Below are positions 597-41,276 of a DNA stretch of 51,326 nt, piece after piece. The translations under genes were made by a program, and so were the position numbers. Source of the stretch: Blastocatellia bacterium (GTDB taxonomy: Bacteria; Acidobacteriota; Blastocatellia; HR10; J050); the NCBI GenBank assembly GCA_025054955.1, contig JANWZE010000040.1, positions 1 to 51,326 of the forward strand. The letters are read 5' to 3'. Below the pieces are notes generated by a model. The model worked only from the letters and a program-made list of their open reading frames with translations. It had not been told where the DNA came from and searched no databases. Position 1 is the first letter of the stretch, and every line of letters begins with the position of its first letter.

Positions 597-860
597 CAGA
601 GTCATCTCCTTATCATGTGGTCTTTGGTTAAGGTTGTGATGGTGTTGCTCGTGCAGACCTCGTATGTGACGTACTTCGTCGGGCGGCGCAGCCCGTGGCA
701 GGCTGAGCTAACCAAGCGTGTGCGCGGTCAAGCCGTGCACAGGCCACCTCGGCGCAGCACCACTGCGCCAGGCCTTTTTGCAATGATACGTCCAGAGCGT
801 TCCACATCTGGCTACCTTCTGCGCGGGCCTCTGCCGACGCCCCCAGCTCAGATTCGTCTC

Positions 861-909
861 GAATCTGGCTCGGACGTCCCGCCGGTGGTCCATTCTCATG
901 CTTCGTGGC
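861..909 (-). repeat. Dispersed intergenic palindromic repeat, copy 1
   Basis: Read on the minus strand it begins GCCACGAAGCATGAGAATG and continues with a GC-rich palindromic core (CCGGCGGGACGTCCG), matching the copies at 8507 and 8586 in order and spacing. It is one of the more diverged copies. Confidence 0.55.
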
Positions 910-1003
910 CTGCATTAACCACACTGGCGATTCCTCAGAAAAACTCCCGTCACGAGGGCCCGCTTCACATCACCGATTTGGAATGTCAGACCCAAGGCGC
1001 AAC

Positions 1004-8438: not shown

Positions 8439-8506
8439 TTTCTACAAAAGCCGTCGTGCGCACGCCACCGCTGTCCCGTTTATTCGGGGACTCGCTCATG
8501 AGCAGT

Positions 8507-8562
8507 AGCTCGCCACGAAGCATGAAAATGAATTACAGGCAGGAATGTCTGGGCCACATTCT
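8507..8562 (+). repeat. Dispersed palindromic repeat, copy 3
   Basis: Begins AGCTCGCCACGAAGCATG and ends GGGCCACATTCT. It is 56 bp long and differs from the copy at 8586 at about 3 positions. Confidence 0.85.
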
Positions 8563-8585
8563 GGTGGGAATCGCCTCGATGCAAC

Positions 8586-8641
8586 AGCTCGCCACGAAGC
8601 ATGAAAATGAATCACAGGCAGGCATGCCTGGGCCACATTCT
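8586..8641 (+). repeat. Dispersed palindromic repeat, copy 4
   Basis: Second 56-bp copy on the same strand, 79 bases after copy 3. Its core AGGCAGGCATGCCTG is a near-perfect palindrome. The tail runs CCACATTCTCAAG, as in the copy before the metalloprotease gene. Confidence 0.85.
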
Positions 8642-8782
8642 CAAGCAAGGCGCAATTGTTCAATCGCTGCCGAGCTTCAATAATCACCGTTGGACAATTG
8701 GTGAGTGAAAACGATAGAGCATGCAATACGCACAGCAAGCTGATTTGTATCGGCGCTCTGTGTGTCGTTCATTCACCATCCG

Positions 8783-10540
8783 CTAGCGCGCCACCACAGC
8801 CCGAATCAGGATATTGACCGGCGTCTGATTGCCGCGTCCATCAACCAACACCAGCGGACCTTGAAAACTCGCTCCATTGTTGACAGAGAAGTAAGCGCGC
8901 CGCCGTTGAATGCCGTTGGAATCAGCCGCGAAAGCGACACCGCCGGCGGGCGACGGCGCTTGGAATCCAACATAGAAATCCCCGCTGGTCAGGGTCGGGC
9001 CATTGTTGATCTGGTAATCAACGAACGCGCCGGCATTCGTCACACTGGGAATGGTGACCATTTGATCCACAGCCCGCTGCGGGTTATTGGGAGGTCGGCC
9101 TGAGCCGGTCGGATCGGTGAAAACAATCAGACGAACTTGCGAACCACTCGGATTAGGCAGACCTGCAAATGCCTCCCAGTAGAGGCGAACGGCTTGCAAC
9201 CGGGCAGGGTATCGCGTCGGCGTCAACCGATTGACGATCAACGCGCCATTAACGGAGACGGCCTGTTCGCTCGTGCCGTCGTCGGTGGATAACTCTTCGG
9301 TGGGATTGAACGTGGTTCTTAGGTGATAACCAAAAAAATCGAGCGCCAACCAATCATTCACAGTGAGCGTTTCTCGTTCACCGGGCGCAATGGTTGGGTC
9401 CATCACGCCGATAAATCGGCCGATGAGCGTGTTATCTTTCCAGTGACTCGCTTGATTACCATCGCCGCCTGAGCCATCGGGTCGGCCGGTCGAAAGGGGT
9501 ATCTCTTCGCCGCCAACAAAGAAGACGTGCTCGCCGCCAGCAGAAAGAATCCGCGCCGCGCCGGTGAATGAAGCCATCGTGACACCTGGCCGAAAACGGA
9601 ACAGGTCCCACACACTGAGAGCCAACGGAAACCGACGGTCAAGTTCTCGGTAGCCGGTGAGCGAGCTAAATCCTAAGGCGTGTCCGATCTCATGAATGGC
9701 AATGGCGTTGAAATCGAAGCGGCCTCGCTCGATACCGTTGTTGGGGTCCAGGTCGAATCTGAAATTGGAGTTGAAGCCAATGGCCGGCGGGTCGCCCAAT
9801 TGACTCTTCTCTCCGGCAGGATCAGCCACCGGCGGCAACAAGCCAAGCGCACGAAACACCGGCGAAGGCGCCATGACCGAATTGATGGAACCAATGTCAG
9901 CAGTCAACGCGCCGCTTGGCAATGCGCCGTAAATCAACGCTTCGTGTGTATCCGGTGTCCGTTGAATCAGCCGCGAACGCACCTCACCATAGTTGCCTGT
10001 GCGACCGATCATCTGTGGGTCTGTCGCGCCTAGAACGCCAGAAGGATACGTTTGCCCAAACCAGGTCGGTCCGTAATCCACATCAATGACCACTGTGATC
10101 GGTGTCTGCACGCGCTCTTCCCAAGCGGCTGCCGCGCGGATGAACGCTTCTCTGGCTTCGGGAAAACGGTCTAGTTGCGGCGTGCCGCGCAGGACAATCT
10201 TCAAGCCATCCTGCTGGTGGTAGAACCGGATTGGGCGAATTGGCATCACTGGGTAATCGGGGTCGCGCGACTTGACCATCGCGGCTTCTTCTGCCGTTGC
10301 TTCTCGGCAGACCAATTCTCCGTCCACCATGCGGCGCACATAGAGGCCAGCTTCAGCAATTCTGATCAGCGCCCGATCATACTCTGCCTCAGTTGATGCA
10401 ACTGGTCCTTTGGGAACCACAGGCGAAAGCGGAACGGCCAGCAACACCAGCGTTATAAGCATGAGGGTGATGCTTGAGCGGCGCAGATTCAGTGGAATGG
10501 GCTGACGCTGCTTCGCAGAAGGTCGTTGCTGCTTGATCAT
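8783..10540 (-). CDS. Secreted metzincin-like zinc metalloprotease
   Basis: The 585-aa precursor has a signal-anchor-like N-terminus (SSITLMLITLVLLAVPLS). The protease domain, about residues 90-400, carries H283-E-I-G-H287-A-L-G-F-S-S, the HExxHxxG zinc signature of metzincins. The position of the usual third His or Asp ligand is Ser293, so the third ligand must come from elsewhere or the enzyme is altered. The last ~150 residues form a beta-rich domain (VRLYWEAFAGLPNPSG) common to exported proteins of this type, perhaps for binding. AAGGAGG precedes ATG 10540 at ideal spacing. A copy of the dispersed repeat directly abuts this Shine-Dalgarno. Substrate unknown. Confidence 0.8.
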   Translation of the reverse strand: MIKQQRPSAKQRQPIPLNLRRSSITLMLITLVLLAVPLSPVVPKGPVASTEAEYDRALIRIAEAGLYVRRMVDGELVCREATAEEAAMVKSRDPDYPVMPIRPIRFYHQQDGLKIVLRGTPQLDRFPEAREAFIRAAAAWEERVQTPITVVIDVDYGPTWFGQTYPSGVLGATDPQMIGRTGNYGEVRSRLIQRTPDTHEALIYGALPSGALTADIGSINSVMAPSPVFRALGLLPPVADPAGEKSQLGDPPAIGFNSNFRFDLDPNNGIERGRFDFNAIAIHEIGHALGFSSLTGYRELDRRFPLALSVWDLFRFRPGVTMASFTGAARILSAGGEHVFFVGGEEIPLSTGRPDGSGGDGNQASHWKDNTLIGRFIGVMDPTIAPGERETLTVNDWLALDFFGYHLRTTFNPTEELSTDDGTSEQAVSVNGALIVNRLTPTRYPARLQAVRLYWEAFAGLPNPSGSQVRLIVFTDPTGSGRPPNNPQRAVDQMVTIPSVTNAGAFVDYQINNGPTLTSGDFYVGFQAPSPAGGVAFAADSNGIQRRRAYFSVNNGASFQGPLVLVDGRGNQTPVNILIRAVVAR

Positions 10541-10951
10541 CCGAGTCCTCCTTGAGAATGTGGCACAAGCGGGAACGCCTGTGCTCCATTTTCATTCTTC
10601 ATGGCGTGACATAGCATAAGGGCGATTCCTTGTTGATTAACTGCGCGACCAACGCAAGGCACGCGACAACAGAGACTCTTCAACAAGTGACAGGATGTTG
10701 GGGCAAATGCCATGCCATAAGGAGCCGAGCTTTTGCTCGTAACGAACGCTTGAGATCAAACAGCTTAGCCTGTCAGTGATGGCGGATGTTAGGAAGTCAG
10801 CGATAAACACATTTCAACGGCGCTGCAACGCGCGTTGCAGACGTGAAAAGAAGAGGCCAGCACTCACCCATCGGCTAAGTGTTGAGTACGCGCCGGTCTG
10901 TGATGCGCTGGCATCATCGCGCGCGGCGCATACACAAAGTGGAAACCATTT
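10541..10951. other. Intergenic region with repeat copy and a perfect 18-bp palindrome
   Basis: No gene is seen. It holds repeat copy 5 (10556-10605) and the perfect palindrome CTGCAACGCGCGTTGCAG at 10823-10840. The palindrome lies about 110 bases beyond the stop of the cupin gene and could be a 3' hairpin or a protein-binding site. Confidence 0.6.
10556..10605 (-). repeat. Dispersed palindromic repeat, copy 5, abutting a ribosome binding site
   Basis: On the minus strand it reads GCCATGAAGAATGAAAATG, then GAGCACAGGCG, then CGCTTGTGCCACATTC, followed at once by TCAAGGAGG, the Shine-Dalgarno of the metalloprotease gene. It therefore lies in the expected 5' leader of that gene. Confidence 0.8.
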
Positions 10952-16449: not shown

Positions 16450-16692
16450 CGAGCGGATAGAGAACAGTGGTCGGTAAACAGTGGTCAGTAGGTAATGGTT
16501 AGTGGTCAGTGAACAGTGGTCGGTGGAGAGTGAATCATCGAAAAGTGAGCAGTGGACAGCGGAGGGCTGCATGAGGTTGAACGATTGTCCACACTCTCCA
16601 CAGACCGCTTGCCACTGTTCACTGAACACGAACCACTGACCACCAACCACTTGCCACTGTCCACCAACCACTTCGCACTCTCCACTATTGCG
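16450..16692. repeat. Degenerate tandem repeat block folding into a large inverted repeat
   Basis: The left half repeats variants of CAGTGGTCAGTG. The right half repeats its complement (CCACTGACCACC and similar). A perfect 14-bp pair is TCAGTGAACAGTGG (16506-16519) with CCACTGTTCACTGA (16612-16625). RNA from this spacer could form a long hairpin between the DUF1326 gene and the next gene. Confidence 0.8.
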
Positions 16693-35427: not shown

Positions 35428-35511
35428 GGATCGCAGAAGTCGCCCATGTGTGCCTACGCCACAAACGATGAACATGAGCAGAACGCAGGTGCTGCGGGCC
35501 GAACGGATGCT

Positions 35512-35530: not shown

Positions 35531-35596
35531 TTAATCTGCACGTCCGTGTCATCGGCGTTCGATTTTTCAAGAGGAATCACCCCTATGCGATTATTC

Positions 35597-35646
35597 GCCA
35601 CGAAGAATGAACATGTGGCACAGGCAGGCATGCCCGTGCCACATTC
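35597..35646 (+). repeat. Dispersed palindromic repeat, copy 6, abutting a ribosome binding site
   Basis: Reads GCCACGAAGAATGAACATG, then TGGCACAGGCAGGCATGCCC, then GTGCCACATTC, followed by ACAAGAGGAGG, the Shine-Dalgarno of the glutamate dehydrogenase gene. The arms GTGGCAC and GTGCCAC are perfect complements. Confidence 0.85.
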
Positions 35647-35660
35647 ACAAGAGGAGGCTT

Positions 35661-37079
35661 ATGGCAAAGCGAGAATTGACATTCTATGAAACTGTTCAGG
35701 CATTTTTCGACAAAGCAGCTCGGTTTACATCACATCCGCCGGGGCTGCTGGAGCAAATCAAGTATTGCAACAGTGTTTACCGTTTCAAGTTTCCTCTGAA
35801 GAAAGAGGATGGCAGCATTGAAATCATCGAAGCATATCGCGTTGAGCATAGCCATCATAAGCTGCCGGTCAAAGGTGGCATCCGTTACAGCGAGATGGTC
35901 AATGAAGATGAGGTTAAAGCGCTGGCGGCGTTGATGACCTACAAATGCGCGATTGTTGATCTACCCTATGGTGGCGCTAAAGGCGGCGTGAAAATCGAAC
36001 CACGCAACTACACGGTGGATCAGTTGGAGCGGATCACGCGGCGCTACACGGCTGAGTTGGCAAAGAAGAATTTCATTGGGCCGGGCGTGGACGTGCCGGC
36101 GCCCGATTATGGCACGGGGCCACGCGAGATGGCCTGGATTCTGGATACCTATTCGGCTCTCAATCCTGGTCAGATTGACGCGTCCGCCTGCGTCACCGGT
36201 AAACCGATTGCGCAGGGCGGCGTGCGTGGTCGCAATGAAGCCACCGGTCGCGGCGTGTTCTTCGGCATACGCACGGCGATGAGTCATACCGAGGACATGA
36301 AAAAAATCGGCCTCACGCCGGGCATTGCTGGCAAGCGCATCGTCGTTCAAGGTCTGGGCAACGTCGGCTATCATGCTGCGAAATTCCTTCAAGAGGCCGG
36401 CGGCATCATTGTGGCGCTAGCCGAATATGATGGCGCTATCTACAATCCCGACGGGCTAGATGTAGATGAGGTGCAGAAGCACCGTCGCGAAGCGCAGACC
36501 ATTTTGAATTTCCCCGGCGCCAAGAATTTTGCCAAGAATTCCGATGCGCTGGAATATGAATGCGACATCCTCGTGCCGGCTGCATTGGAACGACAAATCA
36601 CCGAAGAAAATGCGCCACGGATCAAAGCCAAGATTGTGGCCGAAGCCGCCAACGGACCAACGACCATAGGCGCTGAGGAGATTCTCAGTGAGCGGGGCAT
36701 CATGATCATTCCAGATATATACCTCAATGCTGGTGGCGTGACCGTCTCCTACTTTGAATGGTTGAAGAATCTGAGTCATGTTCGATTCGGTCGGTTGAGC
36801 AAACGGTTTGAGGAAGCCACTAACTTGGCCATCGCCAACGCGCTGGAGCGCGTCACCGGCAAGAGCCTGACGCCCGAAGAACGCAAGTTGATCACGCACG
36901 GCGCGGATGAAATTGATCTGGTCAATTCCGGCCTCGAAGAAACAATGATCACAGCCTACGAAACGATCCGCGACGAAATGCTGCAAACCAAAGGCATCCC
37001 TGACCTGCGCACAGCGGCATTCGTCAACGTCATCAACAAGATCGCTGTTTCGTACATGGAGCTGGGCATCTTTCCGTAA
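35661..37079 (+). CDS. gdhA: Glutamate dehydrogenase (Glu/Leu/Phe/Val family)
   Basis: The 472-aa protein has the substrate-binding segment [12 protein letters not shown], the catalytic Lys motif [10 protein letters not shown] and the NAD(P)-binding motif [12 protein letters not shown]. The C-terminal signature AEAANGPTT is present too. It interconverts glutamate and 2-oxoglutarate plus ammonia, linking nitrogen and carbon metabolism. The acidic residue after the Rossmann glycines (AEYDGA) hints at NAD preference, which is inference. ATG 35661 follows GAGGAGG; the longer open frame from 35607 runs through the repeat and is rejected. Confidence 0.95.
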
Positions 37080-41014: not shown

Positions 41015-41130
41015 AATGATCTACATCTTTACAGGCTCAAACAGAATGCGACAGGCTAGTGGAAGAGCACAGAAAAGTCAAATAGGGCATCGGTGCATCT
41101 GTGCATGAACGGTAGTGTTTCTCACCTGTG

Positions 41131-41180
41131 GGAATGTGACGCAGGCGTCCCGCCTGTGAGCCATTTTCATGAGTGGTGGC
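41131..41180 (-). repeat. Dispersed palindromic repeat, copy 7
   Basis: On the minus strand it reads GCCACCACTCATGAAAATG, then CTCACAGGCGGGACGCCTG, then CGTCACATTCC. The core AGGCGggaCGCCT is palindromic. The tail keeps CACATTC. Confidence 0.75.
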
Positions 41181-41217
41181 GTGCCCTCACACATGGCCGA
41201 ACCTTCCCAACATTTTC

Positions 41218-41276
41218 GCCAACGGATGAAAGGTTCCAGCAGATAGAAGATCCGTTGGCATGTTTCATCCGTTGGC
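41218..41276. repeat. 14-bp perfect inverted repeat pair
   Basis: GCCAACGGATGAAA (41218-41231) is complementary to TTTCATCCGTTGGC (41263-41276). A partial third unit, ATCCGTTGGCA, lies between them. The type resembles dispersed repeats rather than a single operator. Confidence 0.75.

What the first reader, a model, noticed from the sequence alone, without database searches (positions are those of the whole stretch)
10541..10605. Repeat tail runs straight into the metalloprotease Shine-Dalgarno
Read on the gene strand, the repeat ends CCACATTC and is followed by TCAAGGAGG and the ATG. The glutamate dehydrogenase gene shows the same design (next finding). The repeat may bring a ribosome binding site with it, or its hairpin may control translation.
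Basis: partly seen in the sequence, partly recalled or inferred. Interest (0 to 1): 0.5.

Follow-up and report, generated by a model that had tools for sequence, protein, structure and literature searches.

The report
Mobile-like repeats inserted at ribosome-binding sites
A family of small hairpin repeats in a Blastocatellia-type bacterium sits exactly at the ribosome-binding sites of some genes, and comparison with relatives suggests that the repeats insert there without destroying the site, which is an unusual target for such DNA.

Summary
In detail: on the gene strand the repeat ends CCACATTC-TCAAGGAGG-ACTCGG-ATG before the HExxH protease, and the glutamate dehydrogenase (GDH) copy has the same layout. 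It is not chance: in the 500 kb I held, 195 of 238 repeat tails carry RGGR within 9 nt (random intergenic positions 6.4%), and 28 of the 114 tails that do not run into another repeat meet a gene start 7-24 nt on (random 4.0%). But the repeat does not bring a ribosome-binding site to a gene that lacked one: for four genes with the repeat at their start, orthologs in two relatives (8 of 8) have an RGGA Shine-Dalgarno and no repeat detected. At threonine aldolase 738 nt of repeats separate a conserved upstream block from the Shine-Dalgarno. The repeat is modular, most units bounded by RGGAR, in arrays of up to seven. Best reading: non-autonomous palindromic elements that insert at RGGAR sites, Shine-Dalgarno sites included, and leave RGGAR at the 3' junction, so the ribosome site survives and arrays grow. 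Hairpin control is unsupported (predicted accessibility unchanged). A coupled leader ORF appeared in one test and did not replicate. No transposase was found.

The parts
10627..10632 (-). left boundary, CAAGGA (RGGA plus prefix) directly before the element body
   Evidence: matches the right-boundary CAAGGA at 10549-10554
10555..10626 (-). element body of the protease copy, type A left half with hairpin (H) right half
   Evidence: model R1 hit 10547-10635, 89.6 bits
10563..10584 (-). hairpin GCACAGGCG-TTCC-CGCTTGTGC of the right half
10547..10553 (-). AAGGAGG, right boundary of the repeat and Shine-Dalgarno of the protease gene
   Evidence: 6-nt spacer to ATG
10537..10617 (-). mini-ORF (27 codons with stop) from the element's own SD-ATG; its TGA overlaps the protease ATG (ATGA)
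   Evidence: coupling not established
8783..10540 (-). downstream gene: predicted zinc metalloprotease (HEIGHALGF), 585 aa
   Evidence: no Pfam hit
35568..35655 (+). second gene-adjacent copy, flanked by the 8-bp direct repeat CAAGAGGA (35568-35575, 35648-35655)
35436..35480 (+). degenerate type A left half further upstream of GDH
35661..37079 (+). downstream gene: glutamate dehydrogenase
8482..8649 (+). two tandem type A copies, tail pointing at the 3' end of the protease gene; no start codon follows
41123..41210 (-). diverged type A copy, not directly followed by a start
852..940 (-). diverged type A copy, not directly followed by a start
   Evidence: 48.5 bits
3768..3854 (-). type B copy, AGGAG-TTGTTCGTG ... 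CTTTTTT-GAGGAG

Best explanation
The repeat is a copy of a modular, non-autonomous palindromic insertion element of Blastocatellia (Acidobacteriota). Most units are bounded on both sides by RGGAR, in the order RGGA-[left half: TYRYYCATG, stem 1, GCCaCGAANGATGAAAATG]-[variable hairpin domain closed by GAAAATG/CATTTTC]-CAN-RGGAR. Units insert next to RGGAR on one strand. A gene's Shine-Dalgarno is such a site, so the element lands between promoter and start codon, pointing at the gene. RGGAR is present again at the 3' junction, so the gene keeps a Shine-Dalgarno at the old spacing and the junction can take further units, which gives arrays. SHOWN: RGGR at most tails; excess of gene starts; modular arrays; stem-1 covariation; the same left half with other right halves in relatives; orthologs with a Shine-Dalgarno and no detected repeat. 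INFERRED: that the step was insertion rather than loss, that RGGAR is the recognised target, and that the insertion is enzyme-driven.
For: Census: RGGR within 9 nt of 195 of 238 tails against 6.4%; gene start after 28 of 114 terminal tails against 4.0% (p=9e-15). Both nulls are drawn from intergenic DNA that includes the repeats. Modularity and RGGAR junctions; 91 of 146 clusters hold 2-7 units and 0 of 146 lie inside a called gene. Empty sites: GDH, glpX, threonine aldolase and symporter orthologs (79-90% identity) in G001 and G002 have RGGA 4-7 nt before the start and no A-type unit within 400 nt (8 of 8; for L240 only about 80 nt of upstream DNA is held). GDH orthologs in two more distant genomes, read by eye, also show none. 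Threonine aldolase: block TGCTTGACGC...AACCCGATACTTTT at -815..-782 here and -77..-44 in relatives (score 36 and 34, shuffled maximum 25 and 27), and GGAGTGA before the ATG is shared. Structure: stem 1 paired in 82% of cells, double changes 38, against maxima of 81.5% and 31 in 500 shuffles. Relatives: head RGGR in 28 of 37 anchors (random 21%), tail arm plus RGGR in 23 of 37 (random 7%).
Against: No transposase tied to the element: two Y1 (IS200-like) genes in the genome, neither flanked by these units. No target duplication beyond RGGA is convincing (per-position p 0.01-0.77 outside RGGA). 26 of 86 tails that meet neither gene nor module lack RGGR. At three of the four loci only protein identity and the start site anchor the comparison. 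Insertion polarity rests on two genomes of one genus plus, for GDH, two more distant ones. No within-species occupied/empty pair was available. Gene calls are from a simple codon score.
Confidence: 0.68

Rival explanations
1. The element supplies the ribosome-binding site: genes captured a repeat whose built-in RGGAR became their Shine-Dalgarno.
For: RGGR is present at tails with no gene (60 of 86), so the core is carried or left by the element. Among terminal AGGAG tails 14 of 28 are gene Shine-Dalgarno sites against 41 of 182 free intergenic AGGAG sites (Fisher p=0.003), more than plain target sampling predicts.
Against: 8 of 8 repeat-free orthologs already have RGGA before the same start; in threonine aldolase the bases after AGGAG are shared with relatives.
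Confidence: 0.12
2. The repeat is a regulatory leader: its stem-loops, or a mini-ORF read from its own SD-ATG and ending at the gene start, control translation of the downstream gene by coupling.
For: Conserved RGGR-N5-9-RTG in 26 of 37 anchors of relatives (random 3%). In 18 own-genome copies the mini-ORF stops within 15 nt of the gene start in 15, permuted pairings mean 8.7, 0 of 2000 as high. In the protease copy stop and start overlap as ATGA.
Against: With a wider sample 15 of 33 against 11.9 expected, p=0.07 (several rows there use a doubtful start inside the hairpin). In relatives 1 of 13. Mini-ORF frame changes with loop length and ATG position. SD accessibility unchanged. Most copies precede no gene, and the orthologs examined lack the element.
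Confidence: 0.15
3. Ordinary RAYT-mobilised REP palindromes that happen to lie next to Shine-Dalgarno sites.
For: Palindromic, more than 100 copies, intergenic; RAYT-type Y1 genes exist in the genome.
Against: The Y1 genes are flanked by other repeats: GTAG-CCAGACGTGAAACGTCTGG (10 copies in L118 around the C135 gene) and GGGAACGCAGGCGTCTCGCCTGC (C75). These units are longer, bounded at both ends by RGGAR, and their gene-start excess is on one side only.
Confidence: 0.15

Closest known systems
REP elements with GTAG or CGTC tags (Di Nocera et al. 2013, PMC3733652; abstract and passages read)
   Same: short palindromic, high-copy, extragenic repeats with a short unpaired tag at an end; composite arrays; plausibly non-autonomous
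   Different: boundary is RGGAR at both ends, not GTAG/CGTC; units of about 60-130 nt with two hairpins; placed at gene starts above chance, whereas the paper's abstract reports REPs predominantly downstream of coding regions; no dedicated transposase seen
Bacterial MITE-like repeats such as ERIC, YPAL and RUP (review PMC2229807; passages read)
   Same: small dispersed non-autonomous units with secondary structure, some transcribed with neighbouring genes
   Different: no terminal inverted repeats seen; no clear target duplication beyond RGGA; a Shine-Dalgarno insertion site is not described in the passages read
TAACTGA direct repeats of Beggiatoaceae (MacGregor 2015, PMC4679880; abstract and section list read)
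   Same: sets of repeats placed within nucleotides of many start codons
   Different: 7-nt units without a hairpin module; a section heading says canonical ribosome sites are rare there, the opposite of this case
IS200/IS605 ends (recalled, not from a call)
   Same: directional insertion next to a short target on one strand, subterminal hairpins, target-like sequence at the other end
   Different: no TnpA associated; the element carries no gene

Membership tests
GTAG/CGTC-tagged REP | unpaired GTAG or CGTC tag at one end of a 20-40 bp palindrome | tested here: not met
   copies read in register: boundaries are RGGAR, unit length about 60-130 nt
GTAG/CGTC-tagged REP | GTAG type: RAYT gene flanked by the same repeat | tested here: not met
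   both Y1 genes of the genome are flanked by other palindromes
MITE | terminal inverted repeats | tested here: not met
   head ATCGCC and tail CATTYTCAN are not complementary in the alignment; hairpins are internal
MITE | target-site duplication | tested here: inconclusive
   RGGA on both sides; prefix identity only weakly above shuffles; window copies share CAAGGA and CAAGAGGA
MITE | occupied and empty sites between related genomes | tested here: met
   four genes, two relatives, 8 of 8 repeat-free with SD; genus-level, not strain-level
Riboswitch or known structured leader RNA | match to an Rfam family | tested here: not met
   0 matches at gathering score in the window, 0 at E<=1 in six loci
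Riboswitch or known structured leader RNA | conserved structure by covariation | tested here: met
   stem 1; stem 2 pairs 6-7 of 7 in 113 of 210 copies against 43 of 1065 shuffled
IS200/IS605-derived element | mobilised by a Y1 transposase acting on its ends | not testable with these tools
   needs an activity assay or an autonomous copy

The most novel reading that the evidence does not exclude
A family of mobile palindromes uses the Shine-Dalgarno core itself as its insertion site and rebuilds it on insertion. Each jump leaves the gene translatable, offers a fresh target for the next unit, and turns 5' leaders into growing arrays that carry their own SD-ATG mini-ORFs coupled to the host gene.
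Probability: 0.3. Interest if true: 0.75.

Novelty: new variant of a known kind. Interest (0 to 1): 0.5.

Why it matters
Insertion between promoter and start codon is normally harmful. A repeat family that targets RGGAR and leaves RGGAR behind would be a way for selfish DNA to enter the most sensitive part of a gene without silencing it, and would give bacteria a renewable source of 5' leader sequence. It also warns annotators: these repeats can end contigs and offer false start codons, since most left halves have their own SD-ATG.

Tried and rejected
Peptide-coding repeat: the left half plus hairpin is often open from its ATG, but the frame changes with loop length (11 or 12 nt) and between ATG positions, so no conserved peptide. 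Mini-ORF coupling: 15 of 18 in a first sample, 15 of 33 with p=0.07 in a wider sample, 1 of 13 in relatives; kept as a rival only. SD occlusion by the hairpin: no difference. Target duplication beyond RGGA: weak. Known RNA family: none. Transposase of this element: not found. A scan of GTDB contigs with a strict left-half pattern found nothing; a looser one found two contigs of one Blastocatellia MAG, and the tool says that records near the window may be left out. A promoter scan did not flag the conserved block upstream of threonine aldolase, so 'promoter-like' is by eye. The protease search in relatives gave matches of 53-58% over part of the protein; I did not compare their upstream DNA. 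Two further ortholog searches gave nothing usable: a C9 protein, 40% only, and a C143 protein, no match. Rows dropped: one search left out copies without a recognised left half; searches used 137 copies with a recognised head and tail RGGR; one search dropped 48 of 286 left halves without a recognised right half or flank; one search used 18 of the 23 copies (start at most 20 nt after the tail); one search used 13 of its 18 gene-adjacent copies in the count.

Full report
What was checked. The finding says that the repeat upstream of the metalloprotease ends CCACATTC and runs into TCAAGGAGG and the ATG. The sequence shows exactly that on the minus strand (10563 to 10538), with a 6-nt spacer ACTCGG. 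The ORF (8783-10540) carries HEIGHALGF, a zinc-protease motif read from the sequence; no Pfam family matched. The GDH copy has the same layout.

How the repeat looks. The window is contig C40 of a 4.69-Mb, 152-contig genome. A covariance model from 24 copies found at least 150 copies in it (the tool scores only the best 150). Printed in gene-strand register, the copies are mosaics. Left halves: type A (RGGA-ATCGCCC-ATG-stem-GCCACGAAGNATGAAAATG) and type B (RGGAG-TTGTTC-ATG-stem-CCCAGAAACGATGAAAA). Right halves: H (hairpin CACAGGCGGGAACGCCTGTG, then CCACATTCT or CCACTTTTT), T (GGTTATTTTC), K (a longer TTTCGTG-rich hairpin). Other repeat families often follow at the same RGGAR junction. In the 500 kb held, 146 clusters contain 333 left halves; 91 clusters have two to seven; none lies inside a called gene. 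Stem 1 covaries (82% of cells paired and 38 double changes, shuffle maxima 81.5% and 31 of 500), and the right-half domain is closed by a GAAAATG/CATTTTC-type stem just upstream of the tail RGGA.

Is the adjacency more than chance? One search is the final census: 286 left halves, 238 with a recognised right half and flank. Of these, 124 run into another module, 28 into a gene start 7-24 nt on, 86 into neither. RGGR lies within 9 nt of the tail in 107 of 124, 28 of 28 and 60 of 86. Random intergenic positions give 6.4% for RGGR and 4.0% for a gene start (these null positions include the repeats themselves). Head ends, read outward, gave 5 of 215 gene starts. Part of the gene excess is simply that RGGAR sites are often Shine-Dalgarno sites: 41 of 182 repeat-free intergenic AGGAG sites precede a start, against 14 of 28 terminal AGGAG tails (Fisher p=0.003).

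Does the repeat bring the ribosome site? I compared four genes that carry the repeat at their start with their orthologs in two relatives of the same family (79-90% identity). All eight orthologous starts have RGGA 4-7 nt before the ATG, and no A-type unit was found within 400 nt (for L240 only about 80 nt of upstream DNA is held). GDH orthologs in two further genomes of the order, read by eye, also show none. For threonine aldolase both sides of the site are anchored: a block TGCTTGACGC...AACCCGATACTTTT ends 44 nt before the ATG in relatives and 782 nt before it here, with GGAGTGA before the ATG in both. The 738 nt of difference are these modules and others. This fits insertion at, or directly beside, an existing Shine-Dalgarno, inside the likely 5' leader. 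Loss in the relatives is less likely but not excluded.

How it may work. The element appears to enter next to RGGAR with a fixed orientation, and RGGAR is found again at its 3' junction. Either the element carries RGGAR at its 3' end, or RGGA is a short duplicated target. Head prefixes in unique DNA vary while tail prefixes are conserved (CAN), which favours the first; the prefix correlation test is weak. The two gene-adjacent window copies happen to be flanked by CAAGGA and CAAGAGGA direct repeats. Either way the gene keeps its Shine-Dalgarno and the junction can take more units. These steps are inferred.

What is not supported. Predicted accessibility of the Shine-Dalgarno and start codon does not differ between 23 repeat-bearing and 99 other genes. 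The mini-ORF from the element's own SD-ATG ends within 15 nt of the gene start in 15 of 18 cases (0 of 2000 permutations as high); a wider sample gave 15 of 33 (p=0.07) and relatives 1 of 13. I do not claim coupling.

Relatives and novelty. The same left half with different right-half hairpins occurs in other genomes of the order: head RGGR in 28 of 37 anchors and tail arm with RGGR in 23 of 37, against 21% and 7% at random positions. One relative is a named Blastocatellia MAG (JALSQX01). Six paper searches listed no description of such a family; the library holds only open-licence papers and the searches were by word. The closest kinds are tagged REPs (PMC3733652) and MITE-like repeats (PMC2229807); a defining feature of each was tested and not met. 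I file it as a new variant of small palindromic mobile-like repeats, with the Shine-Dalgarno core as junction as the unusual part.

Limits. Gene calls come from a codon score trained on the window; about 11% of the genome was held, mostly chosen for its repeats; the genome is a draft of contigs.

Noticed in passing
L118:300-1720 (G000:C135): A 148-aa Y1/IS200-like transposase lies between arrays of GTAGCCAGACGTGNAACGTCTGG (seven copies before it in direct, three after it in reverse orientation): it looks like a GTAG-tagged REP family with its RAYT, separate from the repeat studied here.
   Followed up: partly
L144:1600-2300 (G000:C75:22100-22800): A second Y1 domain sits in frame inside a long ORF that looks like a DNA methyltransferase, between copies of GGGA(A/G)CGCAGGCGTCTCGC(C/T)TGC; the right copy reads as GNAGVSPA: a REP-flanked transposase apparently fused into a gene without breaking the frame.
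   Followed up: no
window 41218-41276: A palindrome GCCAACGGATGAAAGGTTCC.../...TTTCATCCGTTGGC near the 41123 copy resembles the right-half hairpin of the element in G006, a genome of another family of the order.
   Followed up: no
window 16452-16664: Degenerate tandem and inverted copies of GTGGTCAGTGAACAGTGGTC between two called genes.
   Followed up: no
L011, L030, L043 and others: Further repeat families (CATGCGTTTTGGAGTGCGGCGG..., AAAGCGCCGTCGCCGCTT..., GTCGGGCGGCCACGGCGAG...) often begin directly after RGGAG and alternate with the A and B units, so the RGGAR junction may be shared by unrelated palindromes.
   Followed up: partly
L164:925-1014 (G005:C54): One strong copy (65 bits) with an H-like hairpin in a genome of another family that has only two matches in all; possible transfer between lineages.
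   Followed up: no
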